Below are positions 9,768 through 25,712 of a stretch of 64,000 bases of DNA, in pieces (the stretch's first letter is position 1; each line of letters opens with the position of its first letter). The position numbers and the translations under genes are program-made. Under the pieces are notes generated by a model. That model was not told the DNA's origin, made no database searches, and was given only the letters and a program-made list of their open reading frames with translations. This stretch comes from Nitrospinae bacterium bin107 (GTDB lineage Bacteria; UBA8248). The stretch lies in assembly GCA_002238965.1 (NCBI GenBank), contig MPNJ01000017.1, positions 1 to 64,000 on the forward strand, given 5' to 3'.

Positions 9768-9778
9768 GGGATGGTTTT

Positions 9779-9855
9779 GTAGGGACAGGCCCCCGTGCCT
9801 GTCCAGACGAAGAACAACCACGGAGGGCAGGACAGGCACGGGGGCCTGTCCCTAC
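9779..9855. repeat. Inverted repeat of the GTAGGGACAGG family
   Basis: Bases 9779-9804, starting GTAGGGACAGGCCCCCGTGC, are exactly the reverse complement of 9830-9855. A 25-base spacer separates the arms, so the whole can fold as one long hairpin. Related copies lie at 13363, 27264, 31746, 31857 and 33035. Confidence 0.9.
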
Positions 9856-9895
9856 GGTCGCTATTCGAGGGTGATGTGTAGGGTCAGACATATTT

Positions 9896-9915
9896 GTCGG
9901 ACATATATGTCCGAC
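9896..9915. repeat. 20-bp perfect palindrome (GTCGGACATATATGTCCGAC)
   Basis: A perfect palindrome preceded by a degraded copy (GGTCAGACATATTTGTCGG) and followed by CTAC. A half copy, GTAGGTCAGACATATAGG, lies at 13530-13547. It may be a mobile short palindrome or a dimeric protein-binding site. Confidence 0.8.
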
Positions 9916-10096
9916 CTACAACAGAAACAGCGATGACGCCGGAATGACGGCAGTGGTTCATTCCGAACGAGGGAATGGTTCGGGAGAGGGAATGATGAAT
10001 CGGGCTGCTGGATTCTTTATGAATGGACCACTCAGGAGAAGTTGTCGATTCAAGTGTATGATTCCATTTCATTACTAACCTGATAAGGAGGAAATC

Positions 10097-11452: not shown

Positions 11453-11465
11453 CCGAAACCCCTGA

Positions 11466-11500
11466 AAGCGCCTCCCCCGGCCCCGCCGGGGGAGGCGCTT
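11466..11500 (+). promoter_or_regulatory. Intercistronic hairpin after the binding-protein gene
   Basis: A perfect 15-bp stem (11466-11480 with 11486-11500) with a five-base loop and no following T run. It lies 13 bases past the binding-protein stop and 34 before the permease. I read it as an mRNA-stabilising or attenuating element giving more receptor than permease, not a full terminator. Confidence 0.8.
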
Positions 11501-11534
11501 CGCCCGCAGGCAGCCGGTTCCCGGAACGCTCGCC

Positions 11535-12446
11535 ATGAGCGACCCGTCCCCTCCGGTCGCAACGGGCATGCGGCGGTGGATCGTCGGGTACCTGTTCGTC
11601 GCGCCCGCCGTCCTGCTCATGGGCGCCGGCCTCATCTATCCGGTCGTCCAGGGGCTTTTGCTCAGCATGCAGGACTGGGGGGTCGGCACGCCGATGTCGA
11701 CGGCGGAGTTCATCGGCGCAGACAACTATCTGCGCATGCTACGCGACGAGAACGTCCAGGAATCCATGTGGGTGACGTTCAAGTTCGGCTTCTTCACGAT
11801 CACCATCGAGATGACGCTGGGGGTCGCGCTGGCCCTGCTGCTGGAGAAACCGATTCGCGGCGCGTCCATCTTCCGGACGATCTTCATCATGCCGCTCATG
11901 ATTTCGCCCGTTGTGGTCGGGTTGGTATGGCGCTACCTGTTCGACGCCCGGGCGGGCTGGATCAACCATTACATGGAACTCGCCGGCTTCGAGCCGCTGA
12001 TCTGGCTGGGGGAGCCGCATCTCGCGTTTTTCGCCATCGTGTTCACGGACATCTGGCAGTGGACGCCGTTCGTCTTCATCATCGTGATCGCAGGCCTTCA
12101 GGCGCTGCCTTCGGAGGTGCTCGAAGCGTCGCGCATCGACGGCGCGAATACGTGGCAGCAGATCTTCCTGGTGAAGCTGCCGATGATCAAGTCGATCCTG
12201 ATCATCGCTCTCCTGCTCCGGCTCATCGACGTCTTCAAGGGGCTGGAGGTCATGCTGATCCTGACGGAAGGCGGTCCGGGGCTGGCGACGGAACTGCTCT
12301 CGCTGCACGTCTACAAGACCGCTTTCGACGCCCAGCAACTCGGCTATGCGGCGGCCATCTCCGTCCTCCTGCTGCTGATCGTCTTCGCCCTCAGCCTGGC
12401 GATCCTGCTGGTCAGCAACCCCATGAAAACCCGCGCCGACGTGTGA
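11535..12446 (+). CDS. ABC importer permease (MalF/UgpA type)
   Basis: One of two inner-membrane channel subunits. It has 303 residues with six hydrophobic helices; the first is about residues 15-38. The EAA loop that contacts the ATPase is visible as LEASRIDGANTWQQIFLVKLPMI (near 195-217), close to the family consensus EAA---G-------I-LP. It belongs to the binding-protein-dependent transport inner-membrane family, MalF-like branch. It is followed by the second permease 10 bases later. Confidence 0.93.
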   Translation: MSDPSPPVATGMRRWIVGYLFVAPAVLLMGAGLIYPVVQGLLLSMQDWGVGTPMSTAEFIGADNYLRMLRDENVQESMWVTFKFGFFTITIEMTLGVALALLLEKPIRGASIFRTIFIMPLMISPVVVGLVWRYLFDARAGWINHYMELAGFEPLIWLGEPHLAFFAIVFTDIWQWTPFVFIIVIAGLQALPSEVLEASRIDGANTWQQIFLVKLPMIKSILIIALLLRLIDVFKGLEVMLILTEGGPGLATELLSLHVYKTAFDAQQLGYAAAISVLLLLIVFALSLAILLVSNPMKTRADV

Positions 12447-12456
12447 GGTGAAGGCG

Positions 12457-13290
12457 ATGCGTTTCGAACCGGCCAAACCGAGAATGATCTTCCACTACGC
12501 GGGGCTCATCCTGTTGTCGATCATATGCCTGACGCCCATCTACATCATGATCAGCACTTCCTTCAAGAACGAGGTGCTGATCTTCGACGGGAATCCCGTG
12601 TGGTTTTTCTTCTTCCCCACCCTACAGAACTACGTCGACATCATCGGCGATGCGCACTTCGACCGGTATCTGCTGAATTCCGTCATCGTGGGCGTTTCGA
12701 CGACCCTGATCACGCTGACGACCGGCGGCATGGCGGCCTACGCGCTGGCCCGCATGCAGTTCCCGGGCCGCCAGTCCATCGCCAACGGGGCGCTCCTGGT
12801 CCGCATGATACCGCCGGCGGTGCTGGCGATCCCGGCCTTCGCGGTCTCCATCGTGCTGGGGATTGCGAACCAGCTTTCGGGCCTCGTCTTCTTCTACACG
12901 GCGCTCAACCTGCCCTTCTCCATCTGGCTGCTCTACGGCTTCGTGAAGCAGGTTCCGGTCGAGCTCGAGGAAGCCGCCATCGTGGACGGAGCCACGCCCT
13001 GGCAGGTGTTCACCCGCGTCCTCTTCCCGGTGATGAAGGCCGGTTACGCGGTGACCGGAATCTTCGTATTCCGGATCGCATGGAACGAGTTCATCCTGGC
13101 CCTGCTGCTGACGGACAGGACCACGCGCACGCTGCCGGTCGCCACCAGCCTGTTCCTGACGGACTCGGGCCCCGAGTGGGGGCGCATCATGGCCATGGGC
13201 ACGCTCATCGTCATCCCGCCGCTCATCTTCACCTTCTTCTCGGCACGTCAGATCATCGCAGGCATGACGGCCGGCGCGGTGAAGGGGTAG
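12457..13290 (+). CDS. ABC importer permease (MalG/UgpE type)
   Basis: The second channel subunit, about 277 residues, six membrane helices. The EAA loop LEEAAIVDGATPWQVFTRVLFP is well conserved. I prefer the ATG at 12457 over the GTG at 12448 because GAGGTGA (12445-12451) then sits at the right distance as ribosome-binding site, overlapping the stop of the first permease. The C-terminus ends in the typical ARQIIAGMTAGAVKG of this family. It closes the importer operon. Confidence 0.93.
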   Translation: MRFEPAKPRMIFHYAGLILLSIICLTPIYIMISTSFKNEVLIFDGNPVWFFFFPTLQNYVDIIGDAHFDRYLLNSVIVGVSTTLITLTTGGMAAYALARMQFPGRQSIANGALLVRMIPPAVLAIPAFAVSIVLGIANQLSGLVFFYTALNLPFSIWLLYGFVKQVPVELEEAAIVDGATPWQVFTRVLFPVMKAGYAVTGIFVFRIAWNEFILALLLTDRTTRTLPVATSLFLTDSGPEWGRIMAMGTLIVIPPLIFTFFSARQIIAGMTAGAVKG

Positions 13291-13436: not shown

Positions 13437-13475
13437 GTCATTCCGGCGAAAGCCGGAATCCATTTTGATTTTGCC
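13437..13475. repeat. GTCATTCCGGCGAAAGCCGGAATCC repeat
   Basis: An inverted repeat (TTCCGGC / GCCGGAA) extended by shared flanks. With about 15 flanking bases it nearly matches the reverse complement of 53526-53580, including the TTTTGCC and GGTTTTGC edges. Shorter copies lie near 9932, 25605, 26260 and 53425. Confidence 0.8.
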
Positions 13476-13643: not shown

Positions 13644-13672
13644 TTGCAACATTCGAGCGTTGTCCTTATATT
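13644..13672 (+). promoter_or_regulatory. Predicted promoter of the redox (Idr-like) cluster
   Basis: TTGCAA (13644-13649), 17 bases, TATATT (13667-13672). The predicted start near 13680 gives a leader of about 230 bases before the first large gene, long enough for leader control. Confidence 0.7.
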
Positions 13673-13908: not shown

Positions 13909-14652
13909 ATGATTCGTAAATTTTTCTTGCCTTTCCTTTTGTCCCTGCCTTTTCTCTTTTTTCCAGACGCTTCCCTGGCGAAGTACAAAGTCGTATCCAT
14001 CACAGGCGGCGGCGCCGTCACCGGCAAGGTGAGCTTCAAGGGCACGCCTCCCAAGCCCGTTAAATACATCATCACCAAGGACCAGCACGCCTGCGGGGAG
14101 GGCCAGGTCACCCGCCAGGAGGTGGACGCGAAGGACGGCGCCCTCAGGGGCGTTGTCGTCTATCTCGACAAGGTGAAAAAGGGCAAGGCTTACCCCGAGA
14201 AAATCCAGAGCGCCGTGGTGGACCAGAAGAAGTGCGCCTACGTCCCCTACCTCCAGGTCGTCGCCGAGGGGGGCAAGGTCACCATCCTGAACAGCGACGA
14301 CGCCCACCACAACATCCACACCTACGAGATCATCGGCCGGGCGAAACGCTCCATGTGGAACATCTCCCAGCCCAAGCAGCGGAAGAAAGTCGTCCGCAGG
14401 GCCAAGGTCCGGCGCAGCCCCATCGTCCGTATCGAGTGCGACGTGCACAACTGGATGAAGGGCTTTCTCTTCGTGGCCAGGAATCCCTATTACGCGCTTG
14501 TGAACGATGACGGGAGCTTCGAGATCAACGACGTTCCTCCGGGGAAATACTCCCTGCGGGCGTGGCACCCGGCCCTGGGGGTCAAGAAGAAGAAGATCAC
14601 CATAACCGCCGGGGGGAAGAAGACCGCCGCCTTCACGTTCTCTTCGAAATAA
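13909..14652 (+). CDS. Exported cupredoxin-like protein
   Basis: A periplasmic protein of 247 residues with a signal peptide (1-24, ending SLA). A beta-sandwich region contains a probable type-1 copper site: histidines in DAHHNIH (131-137) and the C177-X2-H180-X2-M183 trio in CDVHNWM. The C-terminal part (about 195-247, NDDGSFEINDVPPGKYSLRAW) resembles the carboxypeptidase regulatory-like fold. Proteins of this build are often labelled methylamine-utilisation or plastocyanin-like. As first gene of the redox cluster it is a candidate soluble electron carrier. GGGGGAG nine bases upstream sets the start. Copper binding is inferred from spacing only. Confidence 0.72.
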   Translation: MIRKFFLPFLLSLPFLFFPDASLAKYKVVSITGGGAVTGKVSFKGTPPKPVKYIITKDQHACGEGQVTRQEVDAKDGALRGVVVYLDKVKKGKAYPEKIQSAVVDQKKCAYVPYLQVVAEGGKVTILNSDDAHHNIHTYEIIGRAKRSMWNISQPKQRKKVVRRAKVRRSPIVRIECDVHNWMKGFLFVARNPYYALVNDDGSFEINDVPPGKYSLRAWHPALGVKKKKITITAGGKKTAAFTFSSK

Positions 14653-14724
14653 GGCCGTATTTCCAGCATATACGGGACGGATGTCTTACAGGAGATAGAA
14701 CAGCCAGCTTGGGAGGAGGGAAGA

Positions 14725-15831
14725 ATGGATTTAGTTCGCGCCATCCGGCGCCGGATACTCTGCGGAATCCTGCTGAGCGCCTGGGTCTTGCTCCCTGCAA
14801 CGGGGTGGGGGGCATCTCTCGAACCCCTGCCGGCGCCCAGGGCCCAGAAGCCCGCCCAGACCGAACTGGGCCGGCATCTGTTCTTCGACCCCCGGATGTC
14901 GGGGGACGGAGGCATCAGCTGCGCCACCTGCCATCAACCCGCCAGGGGATGGGGTGACGGGCAGAGCCTCTCTACGGGCTATCCCGGCAGCAAGTATTTC
15001 AGAAACGCCCAGACATTACTTAACGCCGCCTACAACAAGCGGGTCTTCTGGGACGGTCGCCTGAGCGGGGCCGACCTGCCCACCCTCGTCCGGGACCACC
15101 TGACGGAAGCCCATTTCATGCTGGTGGACGGCCGCCTGTTCCCCGAGCGGCTCAAGCAGGTTCCCGCCTACGTCAAGATGTTCAAGGAGGCCTATGGCGG
15201 GGAGCCTTCCTTCGGCGGCTCGCTCAAGGCCATCTCGGCGTTCCTGCACACCATCACCTCCCGGAACGTGCCTTTCGATGCGTACCTCAAGGGCGACAAA
15301 AAGGCCCTTTCCGCCGAGGCGCAGAAGGGTCTCGCCCTCTTCCGGGGGAAGGCCGGATGCGCCGGGTGCCATAACGGCGCGCTCTTGAGCGACGGCGGAT
15401 TCCACGCGCTCGGCGTGCCCGAAAACGAACAGATATTCAAGGACCCGCTGCGCCACATCACGTTCCGCCGCTTCAACAAGGTCATCGGCGTCCCGAACTT
15501 CATGAATCTGAGGGCCGACCCGGGCCTCTACGTCGTGACCAAAGAGGAGCGCGACCGGGGCAAGTTCCGCACGCCGACCCTGCGCGAAGTCGCCCGGACG
15601 GCTCCCTACATGCACAACGGCGCGCTCGCCACGCTGGAGGACGTCGTCGCCTTCTATAACAAGGGCGGCGGGAGCGGCCCCAACAAGAGTCCAAAGCTCA
15701 AGCCGCTGGGACTCGATGCGGGTGAGCAAAAGGCCCTGGTGGAGTTCATGAAGAGCCTCTCGGGCGAGGCGGTTTCCGCGAAAGAACCGAAAATTCCCGA
15801 TTATGAACTCCGCAAACTCGGCGATAATTGA
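14725..15831 (+). CDS. Di-haem cytochrome c peroxidase, IdrP1/P2-like
   Basis: A periplasmic di-haem peroxidase of the CCP/MauG family that reduces H2O2 to water with electrons from cytochrome c. It has 368 residues with a signal peptide (hydrophobic 12-30). Haem sites are CATCH (66-70) and CAGCH (212-216); the distal methionine lies in APYMHNGA (M296) after RTPTLREV. Two such peroxidases accompany the AioA/AioB-type enzyme in known iodate reductase clusters (IdrP1 and IdrP2), and here both sit directly upstream. GGAGGAGGGAAGA precedes the start. A role in removing peroxide made during oxyanion reduction is inferred from that precedent. Confidence 0.88.
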   Translation: MDLVRAIRRRILCGILLSAWVLLPATGWGASLEPLPAPRAQKPAQTELGRHLFFDPRMSGDGGISCATCHQPARGWGDGQSLSTGYPGSKYFRNAQTLLNAAYNKRVFWDGRLSGADLPTLVRDHLTEAHFMLVDGRLFPERLKQVPAYVKMFKEAYGGEPSFGGSLKAISAFLHTITSRNVPFDAYLKGDKKALSAEAQKGLALFRGKAGCAGCHNGALLSDGGFHALGVPENEQIFKDPLRHITFRRFNKVIGVPNFMNLRADPGLYVVTKEERDRGKFRTPTLREVARTAPYMHNGALATLEDVVAFYNKGGGSGPNKSPKLKPLGLDAGEQKALVEFMKSLSGEAVSAKEPKIPDYELRKLGDN

Positions 15832-15841
15832 GGAGACGGCC

Positions 15842-16981
15842 ATGAACGCGCGAATGAAAAACTGCTTCCTGGGTTCCACGATGGCCGTCTGCTTCATCGC
15901 CGCCCTTCTGGTGGGAGGAGCGGACGCGGCCGAGAAGGGGAAATTCCCTCCGCTGGGGCCCTTGCCGCCTGTTCCGGTGCCTGCGGACAACCCCATGTCA
16001 CCCGCCAAGGTGGCGTTGGGCAAGCTGCTCTTTTTCGACGCCCGCCTGTCGGGGGACGCCAGCACGTCGTGCGCCTCCTGCCACAGCCCCGAGAGCGGCT
16101 GGGGAGACGGCGGGGACCTGAGCCGGGGCTATCCGGGCACGCAGCACTGGCGGAACTCCCAGACAATCCTCAACTCCGCCTATTACGCAAAACTGTTCTG
16201 GGCCGGCGAGGTCCCGAGCCTAGAAGCCCAGGCCAAGAGCGCCGCCACGGGCAACGTGGCCGGAAACGGCGACACCATGATGATGGAGGAGCGCCTGCGC
16301 CAGATTCCCGAATACGTCAAGCGCTTCCGCGAGGTGTTCGGATCCCCCTGGCCGACCATCGACGACGCATGGCGGGCCATCTCGGCCTTCGAGCGCACCA
16401 TAGTTTCGAATGCGAAGGACGTGCCGTTCGACCGCTTCATGAAAGGGGACAAGAAAGCGCTCTCGGAAAGCGCTGAGCGCGGGCTGGCTCTTTTTCAAGG
16501 AAAGGCGGGGTGCGTCCAGTGCCACAACGGCCCCCTCCTATCGGATGAGGACTATCACAACGTCGGCGTGCCGAAGAACCCCGCGTTCGAGGAAGACCCT
16601 TTAAGGCAGATAACGCTTCGCTTCCAGCACGTGATCAGAGGCGTTCCCGAATCCGTCTACCGGAAGGCGGACCGGGACCTGGGGCTCTACTACACCACCA
16701 AGCGGGAGGCTGATACGGGGAGGTTCCGTACCCCCAGCCTCAGGGAGCTGAAATACACGGCGCCCTTTATGCACAACGGCGCATTTTTCGAACTCGATGA
16801 GGTCATTGACTTTTATGACGAAGGAGGGGGAGAGGACGCGAACAAGAGTCCGCTTCTCAAGAAACTGGGGCTTTCTGACGAGGAGAAGGAAGACCTGCTC
16901 GCCTTCCTGGAATCGTTATCGAGCGATGAGCCATTGCTCATGAAGCCCCCCGAACTGCCGCCGTACGCGGCCATGCAGTAA
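15842..16981 (+). CDS. Second di-haem cytochrome c peroxidase, IdrP1/P2-like
   Basis: A second CCP/MauG-family di-haem peroxidase, 379 residues from the ATG at 15842, chosen because GAGGAGA lies just upstream. A signal peptide is seen (about 1-30, ending GADAA). Haem motifs are CASCH (77-81) and CVQCH (224-228), with the distal methionine in APFMHNGAFF (M310). It is clearly related to, but not a recent copy of, the gene before it: between the haems it carries an unrelated insert-like stretch (about 130-150). It starts 10 bases after the first peroxidase and ends 10 bases before the Rieske gene, so translation is probably coupled. Confidence 0.88.
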   Translation: MNARMKNCFLGSTMAVCFIAALLVGGADAAEKGKFPPLGPLPPVPVPADNPMSPAKVALGKLLFFDARLSGDASTSCASCHSPESGWGDGGDLSRGYPGTQHWRNSQTILNSAYYAKLFWAGEVPSLEAQAKSAATGNVAGNGDTMMMEERLRQIPEYVKRFREVFGSPWPTIDDAWRAISAFERTIVSNAKDVPFDRFMKGDKKALSESAERGLALFQGKAGCVQCHNGPLLSDEDYHNVGVPKNPAFEEDPLRQITLRFQHVIRGVPESVYRKADRDLGLYYTTKREADTGRFRTPSLRELKYTAPFMHNGAFFELDEVIDFYDEGGGEDANKSPLLKKLGLSDEEKEDLLAFLESLSSDEPLLMKPPELPPYAAMQ

Positions 16982-16991
16982 GGAGGAATCC

Positions 16992-17534
16992 ATGACTCAG
17001 GAAGCCAAGGAAACCCGGCCTTGCGTCTCGCGGCGCGCCTTTCTCCTGGCTGGCGGAACCGCCATGAGCATCGTGCTGGTCGAGGGCATCCCCGGCCTGG
17101 CCGGAGCGGCCCTGCAGAGGGCTGAGTATCCCCGCCGTAAAATCGGCAAGCTAAGCGCCCTCAAAGTCGATACCCCCCAGTTCTTCCAGTATCCGTGGAA
17201 GGACGTCTTCTCGGGGTGCATGCTGGTCAAGCTGGGCGTCGCCGCAGGCGGCGGCGTCGGCCCCAGGAGAGACGTCGTGGCGTTCAGCACCCTGTGCACC
17301 CACATGGGCGGTCCCCTCCAGGGCACATACAACGCGCAGCACAAGGCCATCGGCCCGTGCCCGTTCCATCTGACGACCTTCGATCTGATGAAGCACGGCA
17401 TGGTCGGGGCCGGGCAAGCCACGGAAAGCCTCCCCCAGGTCGTTCTGGAGACCCGCGGGGACGACATCTACGCGATCGGGATGATGGGGCTGCTATACGG
17501 TTACCACTCGAATCTTGCGCCGGTACAGCGCTGA
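16992..17534 (+). CDS. Rieske small subunit of an AioA/IdrA-type oxidoreductase (IdrB/AioB-like)
   Basis: The [2Fe-2S] small subunit that passes electrons between a periplasmic carrier and the molybdenum subunit. It has 180 residues. A twin-arginine signal (SRRAFLLAGG, 13-22) predicts folded export by Tat, carrying the signal-less large subunit along. Cluster ligands are C102 and H104 in CTHMGG and C123 and H126 in CPFH. The two extra cysteines that form a disulphide in bc1-type Rieske proteins are replaced by Gly107 and Phe125. That pattern marks AioB/IdrB-like rather than bc-complex Rieske proteins. It precedes the large subunit by 12 bases. Confidence 0.9.
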   Translation: MTQEAKETRPCVSRRAFLLAGGTAMSIVLVEGIPGLAGAALQRAEYPRRKIGKLSALKVDTPQFFQYPWKDVFSGCMLVKLGVAAGGGVGPRRDVVAFSTLCTHMGGPLQGTYNAQHKAIGPCPFHLTTFDLMKHGMVGAGQATESLPQVVLETRGDDIYAIGMMGLLYGYHSNLAPVQR

Positions 17535-17546
17535 GGAGGACGCATC

Positions 17547-20213
17547 ATGGCAGGAAAGGTAACGAACTACTACCTTGCGGAAGACAGTGTCCCCCTCCCC
17601 CCGCGAAACGCGGAGGTTTTCACCACGGCGTGCGATTACTGCATCGTGGGCTGCGGGTACAAGGTCTACCGCTGGCCGATCGGGCGCGAGGGCGGGCCCA
17701 GGGCCAACCAGAACGCGCTGGGCGTCGATTTTCCCACCGGCATCATGAGCGGCGGCTGGGTCAGCCCGAACATGCACAACATCATCATGGTGAACGGCCG
17801 CCCACACCACGTCATCGTCATGCCGGACAAGGATGCGAAGGTCGTGAACGTCGGGGGAAACCACTCCATCCGGGGCGGCGTCCTGGCCAAAAAACTCTAC
17901 AATCCCAACGAACCCTCGCAGGACCGTCTGCGCCAGCCGATGATGCGCGTTCGCGGAACCTTGCAGGAGGTCTCGTGGGATACGGCCATGGGCGTCATGG
18001 CGGGAATCTCGAAACACGTGCTCGACAAGTTCGGCGAACACGCCTGGGCCATGAAGACGTATTCCTATCAGTATTTCGAAAACACCTACGCCATCTCCAA
18101 GCTCGCCTTCCGGGCCATCGGAACGCCGGCGTATGCCCCGCACGACAAGCCGGGTCCCGGTCCGGACACGCCGGGGATCGATTTTTCAGGCATCAATCCC
18201 TTCAGCGCCTCCTATGACGACTGGGGAGAGGCCGAGGTTATTTTCTTCTCGGGCGTCGACCCGTGGGAGACCAAGTCGGTGTTGTTCACCTCGTGGATCA
18301 TGGGCGGAAAAACGCCGAACAAGAAGCTGGTCTTCGCCCTTCCGCGCAAGACTTCGGGCGTGGCCTACGGCGAGAAGCAGGGAGGCCTCTTCCTCCCCGT
18401 GATTCCGGGAACGGATACGGTTCTCCAACTGGCCATTATCCGCCTGATCCTCGAGAACGGCTGGGAGGACAAGGAGTTTATCGCGAGAAAGGTGTCGAAC
18501 AAGTGGGAGATCGGCTCCGGCATGGGACGCGGCACCCGCAACACGCCGTGGCAGTGGGTCACGACCTGGGGCAAGTACGGGACCGACTTCGAGGGCTACA
18601 GGAAGTGGATACTGAGCTATCCCTACGCCGAACTGGAGCGAGCCGCGAAGATCACGGGCGTGCCGGCGGCGGACATTCGAAAGACAGCCGAAATCCTCGC
18701 CAAGCCCAAGCCCGACGGGACGCGCAAAAAGACCTCGTTCATGCTCGAGAAGGGAAACTACTGGTGCAACAGCTTCGGGAACACGGCTTCCTTCGCGGCG
18801 CTGGGGCTGGTCTGCGGCGCCGGGTCGCGGCCGGGCCGTGTTATCTCCCGGGGCGGTGGGCATCAGCGGGGCTGGATGGGCGCGGCCGGTTACCCGAGGG
18901 CCTTATCTCCGGAGAAGGCGCCGGGGCGCCGCAAGAAGGAGATCGATCTCGACCGCTGGGTCGTGGACGGCCACGTTCGCTTCGCATGGGTCATCGGCAC
19001 CACCTGGTGCCAGGCCATGGCGGCGTCACAGGAACTGATGGACGTCTTCCAGCGATTGACTCGACACAACCCCCACCAGATCGAGAGCTTCGACGTCGAT
19101 TCGGCGGTGAGTTCGCTCAAGCGGCGCGTGGACGCCGGCGGCATGGTCGTGGCCCACCAGGACATCTACCCGGTTGCTCCCATCGGAACCGAGTATTCGG
19201 ATCTGATTCTTCCGGCCGCCACCTGGGGCGAGGAAGACTTCACCCGCTGTAACGGCGAGCGCCGCCTCAGGCTCTACAGCAAGTTCGCCGACCCGCCCGG
19301 CGAAGCCCGGCCCGACTGGTGGATCATCGCCGCTTTCGCGAGGAAGATGGGCTTCAAGGGCTTCGACTGGAAGGACAGCAACCAGATATTCGAGGAGGCG
19401 GCCCGCTTCGGACGCAAGGGAGTGCTCAACTACCATCCGCTCGTCGTGAAGGCCAAGCGCGAGGGGAAACGGGGCCACGAACTGCTCCGCGAATACGGGA
19501 CCGGCGGCATCCAGACCCCCATCCGCATGGTCAAGGGCGAACTCGTCGGGACGAAGCGGCTCCACGACGAAACCCTCGAACTGGGAACCCCCGAAGGCCC
19601 CACCATGCACAGGAAGTGGCTCACCTCATTCGGGACCCAGAGCGGCAAGGCGGTTTTGCTGAAGAGCTACTGGGAGGACTTCAAGGATTTCTACGAGCGG
19701 GTCACCCCGCAGGGAGACGAGTTGTGGGTGACGAACGGGCGGATCAACGAGCTCTGGCAATCGGGCTACGACGACAAGCGTCGGCCCTACATCATGCAGC
19801 GCTGGCCCCAGCAGTTCCTGGAGATTCACCCCAAAGACGCCGGCGCCCGGGGCATCGAATCAGGAGACCTGGTGGCCATCGAGAACGACGACCTGCTCGT
19901 GCAGACGGGCGGATACATCGGTGTCGACGGCAAGGAGCAGACCTTCACCGAGCTCATGAAGGCCGGGCGGATCAAGAAGAGCAAGGGGAGCTTCACCGCC
20001 GTGGCCATGGTCACCGACGCGGTTCGGGAAGGCGTCACCTTCGCCTATTTCGGCTTTCCCGAAAACCCGGCCAATTCGGTGGTTCACCGGGTGCCGGACC
20101 CCCTGACCAACCGCTACCGCTACAAGCTGGGCAAGGGGAAGTTGAAGAAGATAGGAGAGTCTCCGCACAAGCATTCGCTGACGAGCTTGAGCTTCGTTCC
20201 CCGGACGCTTTAA
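17547..20213 (+). CDS. Molybdopterin large subunit, IdrA/AioA family (putative iodate reductase)
   Basis: A DMSO-reductase-superfamily catalytic subunit, 888 residues. The N-terminal motif C29-X2-C32-X3-C36-X70-S107 is exactly the [3Fe-4S] ligand spacing described for arsenite oxidase AioA. CDYCIVGCGY, SIRGG, NPHQIESFD-type cofactor loops and FENT are also AioA-like. By ungapped comparison from memory with the Alcaligenes enzyme, Glu203, Arg419 and His423 are kept (E178, R435, H439), but His195 becomes K170. There is no signal peptide; export would ride on the Tat-tagged Rieske subunit. Two di-haem peroxidases upstream match iodate reductase (idrABP1P2) rather than arsenite oxidase loci. The substrate remains inferred: iodate first, arsenite or another oxyanion as alternatives. 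Confidence 0.85.
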   Translation: MAGKVTNYYLAEDSVPLPPRNAEVFTTACDYCIVGCGYKVYRWPIGREGGPRANQNALGVDFPTGIMSGGWVSPNMHNIIMVNGRPHHVIVMPDKDAKVVNVGGNHSIRGGVLAKKLYNPNEPSQDRLRQPMMRVRGTLQEVSWDTAMGVMAGISKHVLDKFGEHAWAMKTYSYQYFENTYAISKLAFRAIGTPAYAPHDKPGPGPDTPGIDFSGINPFSASYDDWGEAEVIFFSGVDPWETKSVLFTSWIMGGKTPNKKLVFALPRKTSGVAYGEKQGGLFLPVIPGTDTVLQLAIIRLILENGWEDKEFIARKVSNKWEIGSGMGRGTRNTPWQWVTTWGKYGTDFEGYRKWILSYPYAELERAAKITGVPAADIRKTAEILAKPKPDGTRKKTSFMLEKGNYWCNSFGNTASFAALGLVCGAGSRPGRVISRGGGHQRGWMGAAGYPRALSPEKAPGRRKKEIDLDRWVVDGHVRFAWVIGTTWCQAMAASQELMDVFQRLTRHNPHQIESFDVDSAVSSLKRRVDAGGMVVAHQDIYPVAPIGTEYSDLILPAATWGEEDFTRCNGERRLRLYSKFADPPGEARPDWWIIAAFARKMGFKGFDWKDSNQIFEEAARFGRKGVLNYHPLVVKAKREGKRGHELLREYGTGGIQTPIRMVKGELVGTKRLHDETLELGTPEGPTMHRKWLTSFGTQSGKAVLLKSYWEDFKDFYERVTPQGDELWVTNGRINELWQSGYDDKRRPYIMQRWPQQFLEIHPKDAGARGIESGDLVAIENDDLLVQTGGYIGVDGKEQTFTELMKAGRIKKSKGSFTAVAMVTDAVREGVTFAYFGFPENPANSVVHRVPDPLTNRYRYKLGKGKLKKIGESPHKHSLTSLSFVPRTL

Positions 20214-20260
20214 CGGAGGTGGAAGTTTACACAAGCCCGCAGATCCGCGAGGGAGGTTGA

Positions 20261-20647
20261 ATGCGAATGTCTCGATCGAGAAGATTTATCATCTGCGCAG
20301 GCCCGGTGCTCGCTATGGCGCTCTTTTTCTCGTCCGCAGGTGACGGCGCTGCTCAGCAGAAAGGCGACGTGGCGGCCGGCAAGGTCAAATACCAGCAGCT
20401 TTGCGCCTCCTGCCACGGTGTAACGGGCAAGGGAGACGGCGTCGCAGCCAAGGCGCTCAACCCGAAGCCGCGAAACCATACGGACGCCAAATACATGAAG
20501 ACCATAACGGACGAGTATATCGCCAAGATCACCAAGCTGGGCGGGGTCGCGGTAGGGAAATCGCCGTTGATGCCACCCTGGGGCGGTGTTCTTTCGGACG
20601 CCGACCTCCAGAACCTGGTCGCATTCATGCGCTCGCTGGCGAAATAG
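20261..20647 (+). CDS. Mono-haem cytochrome c
   Basis: A small periplasmic class I cytochrome c, 128 residues with a signal peptide (to about 31). The haem site is CASCH (48-52), and M104 in SPLMPPWGG is the likely axial ligand. It lies 47 bases after the large subunit and 10 before the flavoprotein. It is the natural shuttle between the downstream Rieske/cytochrome b complex and the Rieske subunit of the molybdoenzyme. Either ATG at 20261 or 20267 could start it; GGGAGG precedes both. Confidence 0.9.
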   Translation: MRMSRSRRFIICAGPVLAMALFFSSAGDGAAQQKGDVAAGKVKYQQLCASCHGVTGKGDGVAAKALNPKPRNHTDAKYMKTITDEYIAKITKLGGVAVGKSPLMPPWGGVLSDADLQNLVAFMRSLAK

Positions 20648-20657
20648 GATCGCGGGC

Positions 20658-22703
20658 ATGGACTCAGCGAATCGGGACGCATTCCCACCCGGGCGCTCCT
20701 TTCGGGTCGAGTTGCCCGGCCACGACCACTGGCGGAAAACGATTTGCTGTCAGGATGCGTGTCCCGTCCATACCGACGCGCGGGGTTACGTGACCGCCAT
20801 CTCAGAGGAGGACTTCGAGCGCGCGTACATCATCGCCCGGGGCCCCAACCCCTTCGCGTCGGTTTGCGGGCGCGTCTGTGCTGCGCCGTGCGAAGCCGCC
20901 TGCCGCCGCGGCAACATCGATTCGCCGGTGGCCATCCGTGCGCTCAAGCGATTCGTGACGGAGCGCTACGGGGTGGAGGCCGATCTGGCGTCCGGGAAGG
21001 GGGAATCCGCCTTCTCGCACCGGAGCCTCAGAAGTATGCGCGACCTCCGCTTTCAGCCATCCACGCGTACCATCAACGATTTTTCGGTGCTGGAAGCGGC
21101 ACGCCGCAAGCCCGGAGGGGTGGAGACGGCGGGGCGAAAGGTGGCCGTCGTCGGCTCGGGCGTGGCGGGGTTGACCTGTGCGCACGATCTCGCCCTGCTC
21201 GGCTATGACGTAAGCGTGTTTGAAAAACAGGGCGTCCCCGGAGGCATGCTGATGCTCGGGGTTCCCGAATACCGCCTTCCGCGCGATCTCGTTCAGGCCG
21301 AGATTCAGGCCATCTTAAGCCTGGGCGTGGACCTTCGGGTGAACAAGGCCATCGGGCGGGACTTCAACCTCTCCACCCTTCGCGAGGAAGGCTTCGAGGC
21401 GGTGTTCATCGCCATCGGCGCGCATGTGAGCCGCTCTCTTCCCATGGAGGGCCAGGATGCGGACGGCGTTTTCCGGGCCGTCGAATTCCTGCTGAACGTG
21501 AATCTGAACTTCCGCGTCGAACTGGGCGAGCGCGTCGTCGTGATCGGCGGGGGAAACGTGGCCATGGACGCCGCCCGAGTCGCCGCCCGGGTGGCCGGCG
21601 AGGCGGATGCCTCCCCGAGCGCGGCCGATGAAACGGAAGACGCCGTTCTCATGCGCGAGATGATGGACGTGGCCCGCGAGGCGATGCGCGTGGGGGCGAG
21701 GAACGTCCACGTCATCTGCCTGGAATCCCGCGACGAGATGCCGGCGGCGGACTTCGAGATCGAAGAGGCGCTCGAAGAGGGGATCGATCTCGAGCCCCGG
21801 GTGGGACCCCTTCGCATCGTGGAGAAAGATGGCCGGGTGGTCGGGCTGGAAGTCCAGACGTGCACCCGCGTCTTCGACGAGGAGGGCCGCTTCAGCCCGC
21901 AGTTCGAACCGGACACCAGGCGCGTGATTCCGTGCGATTCGGTGATCGTGGCCGTCGGCCAGGCTTCCGACCTTTCCTGGATCAGCGAGGAGGACGGTGT
22001 CGAGACGACGCCGCGCGGGACCATTCGCGTCGACTCCGAAACCCTGGCCACGACCGCTCCGGGCGTGTACGCGGGCGGGGACGTCGCCATGGGGCCCCGT
22101 ATCTTCATCGAGGGCGTGGAAAACGGCCACCGGGCCGCCCGCTCCATTCACACCTATCTCTCGGGTGGTCAGGCAGGCGTCCAGACAAATCTTCAGTGGG
22201 CTTCTGTCGAGCCCTTGCAGCAGGCGCTGCTGCAGGAGCCGGGGGACGGGTTTTCCCTTCCCATCGTCAACCCCGGATACCAGAAAGTGTCTCGGCGAAA
22301 TCCCGACGCCCTGCCCATCGAGCGCAGAATCGGCGTCGCCGAGGTGGAACTGGGCTATTCGCCCGGGGAAGCGGTCGATCAGGGACTTCGGTGTCTGCGC
22401 TGCAGCGCGAACCCGATCTTCGACGGCGCCAAGTGCATCCTCTGCGGCGGCTGTGTGGACGTCTGCCCGTCGCGCTGCCTGAGAATGGTTCCCCTCGAAG
22501 CCCTGCAGGGAGGAGAGGACCTGGCGGCTCTGGTCCAGGCCCGCTTTGGAACGTCCGCCGGGGGCGCCGTAGAGAGGGGCGCGGCCATGATCATGGACCC
22601 GGACAAGTGTATCCGTTGTTCGCTCTGCGCCCAGCGCTGTCCCACGGGCGCCGTCACCATCGAGAATTTTTCTTTCCAGGAAGAATGGGTGGAGCTTGGA
22701 TGA
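20658..22703 (+). CDS. GltD-like FAD/NAD(P) oxidoreductase with ferredoxin clusters
   Basis: A 681-residue cytosolic flavoprotein related to the glutamate synthase small subunit and NfnB. The N-terminal cysteine-rich region (C30-C35 and C70-X3-C74-X3-C78-X3-C82) should hold [4Fe-4S] clusters. The FAD motif VAVVGSGVAGL (162-172) and NAD(P) motif VVVIGGGNVAMDAA (293-306) follow. The C-terminus carries two ferredoxin motifs, C593-X2-C-X2-C-X3-C and C651-X2-C-X2-C-X3-C. No large glutamate synthase gene is present. Its place immediately before the Rieske/cytochrome b genes suggests it links NAD(P)(H) to the quinone complex; similar flavoproteins accompany some Rieske/cytochrome b complexes, for instance in anammox bacteria. 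Reaction direction is unknown. Confidence 0.87.
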   Translation: MDSANRDAFPPGRSFRVELPGHDHWRKTICCQDACPVHTDARGYVTAISEEDFERAYIIARGPNPFASVCGRVCAAPCEAACRRGNIDSPVAIRALKRFVTERYGVEADLASGKGESAFSHRSLRSMRDLRFQPSTRTINDFSVLEAARRKPGGVETAGRKVAVVGSGVAGLTCAHDLALLGYDVSVFEKQGVPGGMLMLGVPEYRLPRDLVQAEIQAILSLGVDLRVNKAIGRDFNLSTLREEGFEAVFIAIGAHVSRSLPMEGQDADGVFRAVEFLLNVNLNFRVELGERVVVIGGGNVAMDAARVAARVAGEADASPSAADETEDAVLMREMMDVAREAMRVGARNVHVICLESRDEMPAADFEIEEALEEGIDLEPRVGPLRIVEKDGRVVGLEVQTCTRVFDEEGRFSPQFEPDTRRVIPCDSVIVAVGQASDLSWISEEDGVETTPRGTIRVDSETLATTAPGVYAGGDVAMGPRIFIEGVENGHRAARSIHTYLSGGQAGVQTNLQWASVEPLQQALLQEPGDGFSLPIVNPGYQKVSRRNPDALPIERRIGVAEVELGYSPGEAVDQGLRCLRCSANPIFDGAKCILCGGCVDVCPSRCLRMVPLEALQGGEDLAALVQARFGTSAGGAVERGAAMIMDPDKCIRCSLCAQRCPTGAVTIENFSFQEEWVELG

Positions 22704-22704
22704 C

Positions 22705-23196
22705 ATGAGCGCGGGCATGGATGAACTGACCCCCCGGCGACGTATGCTTCTGGGCCTCGGCTGGGTTTCCTTTCTGATTTCCCTGCTGGGCCCGGTCCTC
22801 GCCAACGTCCGGTTCCTGTTCCCCAACGTCGTTTATGAGGGCGAGTCGGTTCTGAAACTCGACGCCCTGGAGAAATACACCGTGGGGTCCATCACGTTTT
22901 TCGCCGACAAGAAAATCGTTCTGTTTCGTGAAAAGGACGGGTTCCGGGCCTGCACCGCCGTCTGTCCCCATCTTCGCTGCGTGATTACCCCCTTCGTCGG
23001 GGCGCCGGGGGCGTCTCCGGATATTTTGAGGGCCAGGTGTCCATGCCACGGCAGCACTTTCGACGGGCGGGGACAGGTGCTCGGGGGGCCTGCGCCTCGG
23101 GGGCTCGACTTCTTCCACATAACGAAATCGCCGGATGGCCGCGTCGTGGTCGATACGCGCAAAGTCGTCGCCCCGTCCGAACATTTCAAGATCTGA
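22705..23196 (+). CDS. Rieske iron-sulfur subunit of a cytochrome bc/b6f-type complex
   Basis: A membrane-anchored [2Fe-2S] protein of 163 residues that oxidises quinol at the cytochrome b Qo site. One N-terminal helix (14-38) anchors it. The cluster box is canonical: CPHLRC (C87, H89, C92) and CPCHGS (C112, C114, H115), including both disulphide cysteines, unlike the AioB-like Rieske at 17 kb. The ATG at 22705 lies one base after the flavoprotein stop; a TTG at 22696 and an ATG at 22717 are possible alternatives. Nine bases separate it from the cytochrome b gene. Confidence 0.92.
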   Translation: MSAGMDELTPRRRMLLGLGWVSFLISLLGPVLANVRFLFPNVVYEGESVLKLDALEKYTVGSITFFADKKIVLFREKDGFRACTAVCPHLRCVITPFVGAPGASPDILRARCPCHGSTFDGRGQVLGGPAPRGLDFFHITKSPDGRVVVDTRKVVAPSEHFKI

Positions 23197-23205
23197 GCCG
23201 TCATC

Positions 23206-24702
23206 ATGGCCACCGAATCCCCTAAAGAAACAGGGCGCAAAAAAGCCGTATCGTGGCTTACGGACAACCGCGTCGCCCGCTCGATCTTCCGCCGGGGCTA
23301 TCCGGACAACGATCTGGATCGCGCGGCCGTCATGTTCTCGAATTTCTTCTTGCACGTCCTTCCCGCGCGAACGCACGTTCACAGCCTGAAACCCACCTAT
23401 ACCTGGGGACTCGGCATCATCTCCCTGTTCCTCTTCGTGATTCTTCTTGGAACCGGCGCTTTGCTCATGTTCTTCTACGTCCCATCGACCGAGCGCGCCT
23501 ACAGCGACATGAAGGACCTGGAATTCGTCGTCTCCTACGGCGTCGTCCTGCGGAATCTCCATCGCTGGGCCGCTCACGCGATGGTCGCCGTCGTCTTCTT
23601 GCACATGTGCCGTGTGTTCTATACGGCCAGCTACAAGGCGCCCCGCGAGTTCAACTGGGTCATCGGGGTGCTCCTCTGGGGGGCGACCCTGATGATGAGC
23701 TTCACGGGCTACCTCCTCCCCTGGGATCAGCTCGCCTTTTGGGCCATCACCGTCGGGTCGAGCATCGCCAGCTATCCGCCGCTGGTCGGAGAATACATCC
23801 GCACGCTGATGCTCGGGGGCGATACGGTGGGGCAGAATGCGCTGATCCGGTTCTATGTCATGCACGTCATGCTCCTGCCGGGAATCATGATGATTCTCAT
23901 GGGCGTCCATTTCTGGCGGATACGCAAGGACGGGGGCCTCTCCCGGCCGCCCGCGCCACTCTCGTCGCCCGCCCCGGGCGAGGCGGCGGCTTTTTCGCCG
24001 CACAAGACGTACATGCTCGTGGAACTTGCCGAGGGTAGAACACCCATGGTCGACTCCCAGGCGCCGGAAGAAGAGGTCATGAGCTGGCCTCACACGGTTT
24101 TCCGGATGCTGGTCGTCTTCGTGGGAGTGGTGGCCGTCCTCTCCGTCGTTGCCTACTTTTTCGACGCGCCTCTGGAGGAGCTGGCCAACCCGGATCATCC
24201 GCCCAACCCCGCCAAGGCGCCCTGGTACTTTCTCGGGCTTCAGGAAATCGTGAGCTATTCCGCCCTGGCGGGAGGCGTCATCGTTCCCGCCGCCGCGATT
24301 ATCGGGCTCATGACCATCCCCTACATCGACCGCAACCCCGAGGGCCAGGGAACCTGGTTCACCTCGGGCCAGGGCCGGCGGATCACGCTCTGGTCGATAC
24401 TGGTCATCATTCCGGTCGTAATCGTCCTGACCTATCTGAACGAACACTACGCGGTGCGGAAGCTGGTTCCGGGCGCTTCGCAAATCTGGGTCGACCTCCT
24501 GAATCCGGGGACCATACTGATCGTCCTCTTCGCGGTCGGTTCGCTCTACATCTGGCGGCGGACGGGGTCGAGCCGGATGGGGGCCCTGGCCCTGTATTCT
24601 TATTTTCTGACGTCTTATCTGATTTACACGTTCATCGGGCTTTATTTCCGCGGCGCCAACTGGGCCTGGATATGGCCGTGGCAGGCAACGGGTCTGCACT
24701 GA
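23206..24702 (+). CDS. Cytochrome b subunit, b6 type with fused subunit-IV-like part
   Basis: The quinol-oxidising membrane core, 498 residues. Haem ligands pair as H119-X13-H133 and H220-X14-H235; the 14-residue second spacing is the mark of cytochrome b6 rather than bc1. The first four helices (about 68-240) are b6-like. A linker (240-300) leads to a C-terminal half resembling subunit IV, fused in one chain. The usual PEWY motif at the Qo site reads [11 protein letters not shown], so the expected glutamate is displaced or replaced. It sits between its Rieske and cytochrome c partners in one operon. Confidence 0.93.
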
Positions 24703-24714
24703 GGCGGATGACGA

Positions 24715-25533
24715 ATGTCGAATTCAAATCACAACGATTCCCATGTGCCGTTCGGCTGGGTGGTCGCCTTCGCCGCCCTGAGCGTGTGCGCGGCATTGTT
24801 TTTTCTGCTGTCCGTCTGGAAGGACTACGACCGCGAATGGCGGGGCTACCAGCGGACGTTCCGCGAATTGCTCGTCGAAAGAGCCGGAACCGAGGAGGAG
24901 CGCAAGGCCGCCCTGTCAAGCGGGGATCAGTTCGAGCAGATCATCGTGGCCGGAGGCGAGCGCGTGGACAGGTGCGTCATGTGCCACCGGGGGGTCGAGC
25001 ACCCGGCTTTCAAGGACGCCGATCAGCCTTTCGCCAGGCATCCCACCATCCCGCTGCACCCCTTCGAGCAGTTCGGCTGCACCGTGTGCCACCAGGGTCA
25101 GGGGCGGGCGACGAGTGTTCAGGACGCTCACGGAGAAGTGCCGTTCTGGGAGGAGCCGCTGCTGCGGGGCGGGTTCATCCAGGCCAGTTGCGGCCCGTGT
25201 CATGCAGGCGCCCTGAAAGACGCCCCCCTCATCCAGAGGGGAAAGCTGCTTTATCTGATGAACGGCTGTCTCGCCTGCCACAAGATCAGGGGCGCCGGCG
25301 GGGTCGTCGGGCCCGACCTCACGTTTGCGGGGGAGCGCCGGAAGGACCCCAAGTGGCACATCGAACACTTCAAGTTTCCGCAGAAGGTTTCGCCCGGTTC
25401 CGCCATGCCCGCCTACGGCCATTTGAAGCCGGAGGATCTCGAAGCGCTCACGGTCTACATGCTGAGCCTCCGCAGGGCGCCTTCCGCCCTGGCGCTGGCC
25501 GCGCCCAGACCGGCCGCCACCGGAAAAAAATAG
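24715..25533 (+). CDS. Membrane-anchored tetrahaem cytochrome c of the bc-type complex
   Basis: The third subunit of the complex, 272 residues. An uncleaved N-terminal helix (14-34) anchors it, with the haem domain in the periplasm. Four haem sites are seen: CVMCH (87-91), CTVCH (122-126), CGPCH (159-163) and CLACH (185-189). The last quarter (175-250) resembles a class I cytochrome c domain, with a candidate Met ligand in SAMPAYGHL. It takes the place of cytochrome c1 or f and should receive electrons from the Rieske protein. It ends the operon; a truncated repeat, not a clear terminator, follows. Confidence 0.9.
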   Translation: MSNSNHNDSHVPFGWVVAFAALSVCAALFFLLSVWKDYDREWRGYQRTFRELLVERAGTEEERKAALSSGDQFEQIIVAGGERVDRCVMCHRGVEHPAFKDADQPFARHPTIPLHPFEQFGCTVCHQGQGRATSVQDAHGEVPFWEEPLLRGGFIQASCGPCHAGALKDAPLIQRGKLLYLMNGCLACHKIRGAGGVVGPDLTFAGERRKDPKWHIEHFKFPQKVSPGSAMPAYGHLKPEDLEALTVYMLSLRRAPSALALAAPRPAATGKK

Positions 25534-25604: not shown

Positions 25605-25625
25605 GTCATTCCGGCGAAAGCAGGA
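25605..25625. repeat. Truncated GTCATTCCGG repeat
   Basis: GTCATTCCGGCGAAAGCAGG matches the first two thirds of the copy at 13437. Just upstream, 25554-25571 (GCAGGGACAGGTCGCGA) is a truncated GTAGGGACAGG-family copy, so two repeat families are again side by side. Confidence 0.65.
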
Positions 25626-25712
25626 CCGCTCAAGACTGCGGCGCGCGCTTGAGGCTGGACGAGAACAGCGGGCGCGGGCCGGAACGCCCACGCCCGCTCC
25701 CTCGGTTTGCGC

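What the first reader, a model, noticed from the sequence alone, without database searches (positions are those of the whole stretch)
13909..25533. Idr-like (iodate-reductase type) enzyme fused in one operon with its own Rieske/cytochrome b complex
Seen: ten same-strand genes, most gaps 1-12 bases, encode a cupredoxin-like protein, two di-haem peroxidases, an AioB-type Rieske, an AioA-type Mo subunit, cytochrome c, a GltD-like flavoprotein, a bc-type Rieske, b6-type cytochrome b and tetrahaem cytochrome c. Established: AioA/AioB homologues plus two di-haem cytochrome c peroxidases define iodate reductase (idrA, idrB, idrP1, idrP2); arsenite oxidase loci lack the peroxidase pair. Inference: this is a self-contained respiratory module bringing quinol electrons to a periplasmic oxyanion reductase, in the gene order P-P-B-A. 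I know of no description of idr genes co-operonic with a bc complex and an NAD(P) flavoprotein.
Basis: partly seen in the sequence, partly recalled or inferred. Interest (0 to 1): 0.93.

Follow-up and report, generated by a model that had tools for sequence, protein, structure and literature searches.

The report
Iodate reductase operon with NAD-linked bc complex
A bacterium carries, in one tightly packed and conserved gene cluster, the enzyme that most likely breathes iodate together with a membrane complex that could feed it electrons and, as a by-product, charge up the cell's own reducing power; we found no earlier description of this pairing.

Summary
Ten same-strand genes (13909-25533) encode a cupredoxin, two di-haem peroxidases, an AioB-type Rieske and an AioA-type Mo protein, then cytochrome c, a GltD-like Fe-S flavoprotein, a Rieske, fused b6/IV cytochrome b and tetrahaem cytochrome c. 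The large subunit is IdrA-like: 61% identical to Denitromonas iodatirespirans IR-12, 31-34% to five AioA, inside the IdrA clade. P-P-B-A is the ordinary idr order. The second set is a widespread complex: its Rieske is closest, among solved structures, to that of an anammox Rieske/cytochrome b complex carrying an NAD(P) oxidoreductase (Kuste4569). In other genomes it lies beside NarG-like, NapA-like or NosZ genes. It adjoins idr in the window's genus, in another genus of the family (other side of idr) and in a proteobacterial MAG: 4 of 80 fetched idr loci, 4 of 41 with enough flank. Gaps from P1 to the last gene are identical in four genomes (the window's included). Best reading: quinol is oxidised, one electron going to iodate, the other toward NAD+. 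The coupling is supported by gene order; bifurcation is inferred from the anammox proposal and untested. New variant of a known kind.

The parts
13909..14652 (+). Secreted cupredoxin with a C-terminal carboxypeptidase-regulatory-like domain; candidate electron carrier to IdrAB
   Evidence: Pfam for the C-terminal domain; AlphaFold model pLDDT 90.5, Foldseek matches to amicyanin, plastocyanin, pseudoazurin; H134, C177, H180, M183 invariant in 18 aligned sequences
14725..15831 (+). Di-haem cytochrome c peroxidase, IdrP1-like (2 CxxCH)
   Evidence: PF03150 144.6 bits; 48% to the IR-12 locus gene (L072)
15803..16981 (+). Di-haem cytochrome c peroxidase, IdrP2-like (2 CxxCH); real start possibly 15842
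   Evidence: PF03150 149.4 bits; 62% to the IR-12 locus gene
16992..17534 (+). IdrB-like Rieske small subunit with a twin-arginine motif near its N-terminus
   Evidence: TIGR02694 123.5 bits, cut-off 95.65; AioB chains are the best solved relatives; 64% to the IR-12 locus gene
17547..20213 (+). IdrA-like molybdopterin catalytic subunit, 888 aa, no signal peptide seen by eye
   Evidence: TIGR02693 456.8 bits, cut-off 359.05; tree; signature columns
20261..20647 (+). Mono-haem cytochrome c, probably of the bc module
   Evidence: PF13442/PF00034; precedes the flavoprotein in L161, L162, L164, where no idr lies beside it
20658..22703 (+). GltD/NfnB-like FAD and NAD(P) binding flavoprotein with N- and C-terminal Fe-S cluster motifs (cytoplasmic)
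   Evidence: PF07992, PF14691, PF12838; nearest solved 9bov/9bp5; motifs; start
22705..23196 (+). Rieske subunit of the cytochrome b complex
   Evidence: PF00355; nearest solved sequence 9rk4 = Kuenenia Kuste4569
23206..24702 (+). Cytochrome b6 fused to subunit IV
   Evidence: PF00033, PF13631, PF00032; b6-type His positions and KAPWY motif
24715..25533 (+). Membrane-anchored tetrahaem cytochrome c
   Evidence: 4 CxxCH, PF02433/PF00034; hydrophobic N-terminal stretch by eye

Best explanation
An iodate-respiration operon in which a periplasmic IdrAB iodate reductase with its two di-haem peroxidases is supplied by its own NAD-linked Rieske/cytochrome b complex. Menaquinol is oxidised at the outer quinol site. 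One electron goes to the Rieske protein, the tetrahaem cytochrome c and then the small cytochrome c or the cupredoxin to IdrB and IdrA, where iodate is reduced; P1 and P2 remove peroxide. The other electron goes over the two b haems and the Fe-S chain of the cytoplasmic flavoprotein to FAD and NAD+, so that the very high potential of iodate pulls electrons uphill into NADH. Shown by sequence: gene identities, clade, conserved order, motifs. Inferred: iodate as substrate (from the clade and two cultured members), physical contact between the two sets, and the direction of electron flow into NAD+.
For: IdrA placement: 61.5% to IR-12, 31.0-34.3% to five AioA; a 60-row clade with SH-aLRT 100 holds the window, D. 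iodatirespirans IR-12 and Notoacmeibacter marinus, species reported to reduce iodate (passages of PMC8692401, and PMC11445184; that L071 is the very strain tested, KCTC 52427T, was not checked). Peroxidase pair next to it. Base-exact spacing P1 to c4 in four genomes, the window's included. Pairing in three settings: window genus (module downstream), L050 (upstream), L100 (upstream, its cytochrome b in another 100/100 clade); on the cytochrome b tree the idr-linked label needs 3 changes and starred branches force 3. Flavoprotein beside cytochrome b in 20 of 20 fetched non-idr loci of 16 family codes; a Rieske frame was picked up in 19 of these 20, not in L176. Glu at the NAD-site position of the flavoprotein in 23 of 24 rows, KAPWY in 23 of 23 cytochrome b rows. 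Rieske nearest to Kuste4569 (9rk4, 58.5 bits; best b6f one 42.2), whose complex is proposed to reduce NAD(P)+ by bifurcation. By motif spacing the window Rieske has the Ser/Phe pair reported for Kustd1480, measured at +335 mV (the two were not aligned). Two MqnA/D-family matches and one haem-copper oxidase in the genome. Eh of iodate/iodide 0.72 V at pH 8.1.
Against: No activity, expression or complex data. Bifurcation to NAD(P)+ is unproven even in Kuenenia, whose authors also name the unsolved problem of keeping quinone from being reduced at the inner site. The window's cytochrome b has no cysteine in the stretch where b6f proteins bind haem c_n (position recalled), while the anammox models have that haem. 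37 of the 41 idr loci with enough flank show no such module, and G012 has idr and the module on separate contigs, though its idr contig ends some 0.6 kb behind idrA, so Idr does not seem to need it. IdrAB in IR-12 is modelled as fed by cytochrome c551 and a bc1 complex. Another Rieske/b6/IV complex lies elsewhere in the genome.
Confidence: 0.45

Rival explanations
1. The flavoprotein is the entry, not the exit: NADH gives electrons through FAD and Fe-S clusters to the b haems or to quinone, and the Rieske arm passes them to cytochromes and iodate. A one-operon NADH:iodate respiratory chain without bifurcation.
For: Same gene set; GltD-like proteins can run in either direction (general knowledge); menaquinone genes in the genome; NADH to iodate is strongly downhill.
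Against: The anammox authors judge NADH oxidation by such a complex wasteful because NADH dehydrogenases conserve that energy (PMC12954380); keeping Rieske and both b haems is not obviously needed for this route.
Confidence: 0.25
2. An ordinary proton-pumping Q-cycle complex feeds IdrAB; the flavoprotein is co-transcribed but not wired to cytochrome b.
For: The IR-12 model uses a bc1 complex and a soluble cytochrome c; the genome's second Rieske/b6/IV complex has no full-length flavoprotein beside it and yet the same KAPWY motif.
Against: Flavoprotein beside cytochrome b in 20 of 20 fetched non-idr module loci, gap of 1 base to the Rieske gene in the window.
Confidence: 0.13
3. The Mo enzyme acts on something other than iodate (arsenite, or another oxyanion), with the same electron route.
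For: NCBIfam names it arsenite-oxidase type; the columns recalled as H195, R419, H423 of AioA are kept; I know of no tested member in the window's 13-row subclade.
Against: The column recalled as AioA Glu203, E in 5 of 5 AioA rows, is D in the window and in 71 of 88 Idr-clade rows; 13 of 13 signature columns are of Idr type; shared SH-aLRT 100 clade with two iodate-reducing species; peroxidase pair.
Confidence: 0.12
4. Two respiratory modules are neighbours without direct electron exchange.
For: The two sets are separable: idr without the module in 37 of 41 well-flanked loci, the module without idr in 20 fetched loci.
Against: Three settings of the pairing and base-exact spacing; the module also lies beside other reductase genes in 8 of 20 fetched loci.
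Confidence: 0.05

Closest known systems
idrABP1P2 iodate reductase clusters (Pseudomonas sp. SCT, Denitromonas iodatirespirans IR-12; PMC8692401)
   Same: IdrA-clade catalytic subunit, Rieske small subunit with Tat motif, two di-haem peroxidases, order P1-P2-B-A as in the IR-12 locus L072
   Different: Near L072 the profiles found no cytochrome b and no bc-type Rieske, only a weak GltD-profile match on the other strand (40 bits against 959 in the window); here five module genes follow idrA. The SCT locus was not fetched
Kuenenia stuttgartiensis NAD(P)-oxidoreductase Rieske/cytochrome b complexes (Kuste4569-4574, Kustd1480-1485; PMC12954380)
   Same: Rieske, b6-like cytochrome b and subunit IV, multihaem c, Nfn/GltD-like NAD(P) oxidoreductase; window Rieske nearest to 9rk4
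   Different: Partner is IdrAB instead of an HAO-like octahaem protein; b6 and IV fused in one chain; no cysteine for haem c_n; tetrahaem instead of hexa- or octahaem c
Rieske/cytochrome b genes beside nitrate or nitrite reductases (Caldithrix nap, haloarchaeal nar, Nitrospira ONR)
   Same: bc-type genes beside an oxyanion reductase
   Different: Other acceptor enzymes; the passages that I read mention no NAD flavoprotein
Arsenite oxidase AioAB
   Same: 3Fe-4S cysteines, Rieske subunit, family models
   Different: 31-34% identity, separate clade, no peroxidase genes in the five AioA loci fetched, different residue at the column recalled as Glu203

Membership tests
Iodate reductase (Idr) | Catalytic subunit in the IdrA clade, not AioA | tested here: met
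   Tree of 93 rows with 5 AioA as outgroup; 13 of 13 signature columns
Iodate reductase (Idr) | Conserved synteny of idrA, idrB, idrP1, idrP2 (criterion of PMC8692401) | tested here: met
Iodate reductase (Idr) | IdrB with Tat signal, IdrP1/P2 with Sec signal, IdrA without signal | tested here: inconclusive
   By eye on the N-termini (SRRAF in B; hydrophobic leaders in P1, P2; none in A); no signal-peptide program was run
Iodate reductase (Idr) | Reduces iodate | not testable with these tools
   Needs an assay
Arsenite oxidase (Aio) | Catalytic subunit in the AioA clade | tested here: not met
NAD(P)-linked Rieske/cytochrome b complex (anammox type) | Rieske, b6/IV cytochrome b, multihaem c and GltD/Nfn-like flavoprotein encoded together | tested here: met
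NAD(P)-linked Rieske/cytochrome b complex (anammox type) | Relationship to the Kuenenia subunits | tested here: inconclusive
   Rieske only: 9rk4 first and 9rk3 third among 71 distinct solved sequences matched, 60 shown. The other Kuenenia subunits were not compared; only their solved neighbour 9bp5 is shared with the flavoprotein
NAD(P)-linked Rieske/cytochrome b complex (anammox type) | Haem c_n bound by a cysteine of b6 | tested here: not met
   No cysteine in the window stretch around TYTWGLG, where L170, L171 and L174 have one; the position of the b6f cysteine is recalled
NAD(P)-linked Rieske/cytochrome b complex (anammox type) | Bifurcation of quinol electrons to NAD(P)+ | not testable with these tools
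   Proposed, not shown, in Kuenenia

The most novel reading that the evidence does not exclude
Iodate respiration directly drives NADH formation: a dedicated quinol-bifurcating Rieske/cytochrome b complex sends one electron to iodate and the other to NAD+, and this NAD-linked complex is a portable unit that evolution has plugged several times into different terminal reductases (Idr, Nar/Nap-like, NosZ, anammox nitrite enzymes).
Probability: 0.35. Interest if true: 0.88.

Novelty: new variant of a known kind. Interest (0 to 1): 0.64.

Why it matters
How electrons reach IdrAB is an open point of iodate respiration; the IR-12 model borrows a generic bc1 complex. Here a candidate donor complex is written into the operon, so the question becomes testable. 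It also takes the anammox-type NAD-linked Rieske/cytochrome b complex out of anammox: relatives were found in 16 family codes and beside several kinds of reductase genes, which makes quinone-based bifurcation to NAD+ a possibly general device that could be tested in organisms easier to grow than anammox bacteria.

Tried and rejected
Arsenite oxidase: rejected on clade, signature columns and peroxidase pair. Special gene order as the novelty: rejected, P-P-B-A in 55 of 57 usable loci. Chance neighbourhood: rejected by three settings and identical spacing; one linkage followed by rearrangement or losses inside the family is not excluded. Promoter scan: one sigma-70-like site at 13644-13672 just upstream of the cupredoxin, but 2.1 were expected by chance, so it carries no weight; terminator-like sites, 20 found against 12.7 expected, likewise. 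Habitat: a search for MAG names listed one unrelated paper, so no habitat is claimed. Searches of the own genome for PF01077 and TIGR01173 (a mistaken accession, it is glmU) were not used. Ten paper searches: judged by their listings, none shows a paper on idr genes next to a Rieske/cytochrome b or GltD-like gene. The library lacks most subscription journals, and figures and supplements (for example Fig. 5 and S1 of PMC8692401, which draw ten genes on each side) could not be seen, so such a neighbourhood may have been drawn there without comment. Papers seen in part: passages of PMC8692401 (and its section 9), PMC11445184, PMC5317091, PMC13053071, PMC10100899, PMC4683180, PMC10746228, PMC5958258, PMC3578206, PMC6606698; passages and the whole discussion of PMC12954380; part 1 of 3 of PMC10989891.
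Full report
What is there. Set one: cupredoxin (13909), di-haem peroxidases P1 (14725) and P2 (15803), AioB-type Rieske (16992), AioA-type Mo subunit (17547). Set two: cytochrome c (20261), GltD-like flavoprotein (start most likely 20658), Rieske (start most likely 22705), fused b6/subunit IV cytochrome b (23206), tetrahaem cytochrome c (24715). Spacing from P1 to the last gene is -29, 10, 12, 47, 10, 1, 9, 12 bases in the window, L044, L045, L129 and L130 alike; L045 and L130 are evidently one contig, so this is four genomes, the window's included. The gap between cupredoxin and P1 is 72 in the window and 404-463 in the others. A further congener, G006, has idrA and the cytochrome b 3.4 kb apart on one contig; in G005 the two lie on different contigs; G004 (79% complete) gave neither at the limits used.

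Is it an iodate reductase? The large subunit passes the NCBIfam model for the arsenite oxidase large subunit (456.8 bits, cut-off 359.05), but so would plain Idr proteins: the Azonexus plasmid copy, in a cluster with order P-P-B-A-c, bears the same name. In the plasmid collection the window protein is 58-59% identical to the Azonexus and Thiothrix proteins, 49% to a Vibrio one and 27-31% to the remaining 33 of 36 records. One scan of genome contigs with an eight-sequence alignment gave 416 relatives, of which the best 80 were kept, among them D. iodatirespirans IR-12 (L072) and Notoacmeibacter marinus XMTR2A4 (L071). A tree of 93 rows, 88 Idr-like and 5 AioA, puts the window in a 13-row clade with Rokubacteria, Methylomirabilota and one MAG labelled Deltaproteobacteria (SH-aLRT 100), inside a 60-row clade (100) that also holds L071 and L072 (quick method, no bootstrap, long AioA branches flagged). 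PMC11445184 (passages) says that an idrA knock-out of IR-12 does not grow with iodate, citing PMC8692401, and itself reports iodate reduction by N. marinus KCTC 52427T; whether L071 is that strain was not checked. Roseovarius azorensis, whose Idr was identified there from an active gel band, was not placed on the tree. In the alignment 13 columns are at least 97% one letter in the 88 Idr-like rows and another letter (or a gap, 4 columns) in all 5 AioA rows; the window, itself one of the 88, has the Idr state in all 13. The column that I recall as Glu203 of AioA is E in 5 of 5 AioA rows, D in the window and in 71 of 88 Idr-like rows; the 3Fe-4S cysteines and the columns recalled as His195, Arg419 and His423 are kept.

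Order and neighbours of idr. Of the 80 loci, 57 reach at least 5.5 kb before idrA; 52 of them read P1-P2-B-A, L063 the same with broken matches, L105 and L107 the same with an extra peroxidase behind, L093 has P1 behind A, and L061 shows no P or B match at all; the other 23 are short upstream and none contradicts the order. PMC8692401 itself notes poor conservation of the genes around idrABP1P2. A cytochrome b of the present type was found by profile in 4 of the 80 loci (L044, L045, L050, L100); 41 of the 80 have at least 5 kb before P1 and 5.5 kb behind A, all four among them. The flavoprotein profile matches the same four at 908-962 bits; elsewhere it gives only weak matches (65 bits in L047, 47 in L084, 40 in L072 and lower), which look like other flavoproteins. 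A cupredoxin gene lies somewhere in the fetched stretch in 29 of 59 loci that reach at least 1.5 kb upstream of P1, and within 800 bases upstream in at least 14.

The second set beside idr. In L050 (same family, genus code g5) flavoprotein-Rieske-cytochrome b-tetrahaem c lies upstream of cupredoxin and idr instead of downstream; there the tetrahaem gene is split over two frames and the middle of idrA reads oddly, perhaps assembly errors. In L100, a MAG labelled Proteobacteria, the module is again upstream, with an eight-haem cytochrome. The cytochrome b of L100 falls in a different 100/100 clade from the window's; the idr-linked label needs 3 changes, and starred branches force 3. That may be three gains, or fewer gains with losses within the family, where G012, G016 and G007 carry the module away from idr (G012's idr contig ends about 0.6 kb behind idrA; G016 and G007 gave no idrA).

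Distribution without idr. A search of 386 genomes with the cytochrome b gave 33 genomes with a match at E up to 1e-90. Outside the genus I fetched the 20 strongest places except the idr-linked G010; they carry 16 family codes, three of the genomes being of the window's own family. All 20 have the flavoprotein beside cytochrome b, and a Rieske frame was picked up in 19, not in L176. Twelve weaker matches of the same list were not fetched with flanks; three of them (L157-L159) and the own second copy (L127) entered the tree only, and L127 has no full-length flavoprotein beside it. Next to the module I could identify NarG-like or type II DMSO reductase-like genes in 5 of 20 (L169, L170, L171, L174, L176), NapA-like in 2 (L173, L177), NosZ in 1 (L172), an MtrC-like decahaem protein in 1 (L165), a cytoplasmic formate dehydrogenase with NuoF about 1 kb away in 1 (L164), a cupredoxin in 1 (L178); in the other 9 I recognised no terminal enzyme (not every neighbour was scanned). 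Names rest on family models; the NarG-like ones could work in another direction.

Kinship with the anammox complexes. The bc-type Rieske matched 71 distinct solved sequences (60 shown); the best is 9rk4 (58.5 bits), the third 9rk3, which are Kuste4569 and Kustd1480. That paper (PMC12954380; passages and the whole discussion read) argues for quinol bifurcation with NAD(P)+ as low-potential acceptor, with Rieske potentials of +303 and +335 mV, and says openly that preventing quinone reduction at the inner side is a problem. By motif spacing the window Rieske has Ser and Phe where Kustd1480 has Ser114 and Phe116; the two were not aligned. The flavoprotein's best solved relative, 9bov/9bp5, is also the structural neighbour that the authors found for their NAD(P) reductase. 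The NAD region reads CLES, with the Glu in 23 of 24 rows (not L175), where I recall Arg-Arg in NADPH-using GltD; this hints at NADH. The b6-type histidines are kept, and PEWY (recalled) is KAPWY in 23 of 23 rows; the window has no cysteine in the stretch where I recall the haem c_n cysteine.

Mechanism. Shown: identities, clade, order, motifs. Inferred: iodate as acceptor; electron path menaquinol, Rieske, tetrahaem c, small c or cupredoxin, IdrB, IdrA; second electron over b haems and Fe-S clusters to NAD+. The genome has two matches to PF02621 (MqnA/MqnD family), so menaquinone is likely, and one haem-copper oxidase subunit I, so iodate is probably not its only acceptor. With iodate/iodide at 0.72 V (pH 8.1), menaquinone at -74 mV and NAD at -320 mV, the downhill step is about three times the uphill one; the pH values differ, so this is only a guide.

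Setting. The named congeners are MAGs labelled Nitrospinota or just bacterium, but by the kinship codes the window's genome shares only the domain with another genome labelled Nitrospinae (G360, the contig of L070).

Verdict. The combination is real and conserved. Both halves are of known kinds; their union in one operon, repeated in other settings, did not appear in the listings of ten paper searches. The coupling is likely, the bifurcation is a testable proposal.

Noticed in passing
window 13440-13459, 25608-25627, 53428-53447, 53543-53562: Copies of a 20-base REP-like palindrome (ATTCCGGCGAAAGCCGGAAT), 4 within 3 mismatches against 0 expected; the first two bracket the operon.
   Followed up: partly
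window 13909-14652 and idr loci of many phyla: A cupredoxin with invariant His, Cys, His, Met positions (18 aligned) occurs in the fetched stretch of 29 of 59 usable idr loci; it may be an unrecognised electron donor of iodate reductases.
   Followed up: partly
L172:153-9332: The NAD-linked Rieske/cytochrome b module precedes two cytochromes with two CxxCH each and a nitrous oxide reductase gene.
   Followed up: no
G000:C17, about 275560-277790 (L127): A second, split Rieske/b6/subunit IV complex without full-length flavoprotein in the same genome.
   Followed up: partly
L164:7872-18446: In a family member without idrA match the module lies near a NuoF/formate dehydrogenase pair, with an Rrf2 regulator between.
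   Followed up: no
L061: A planctomycete idrA-like gene with 10 kb on both sides and no match to P1, P2 or B: a lone idrA.
   Followed up: no
window 8640-13290: Upstream of the operon: ABC uptake genes of sugar type (ATPase with MalK domain, binding protein, two permeases).
   Followed up: no
L047:11383-12768: In a Methylomirabilota idr locus a weaker GltD-like protein (461 aa) follows idrA, without cytochrome b in the fetched stretch.
   Followed up: no
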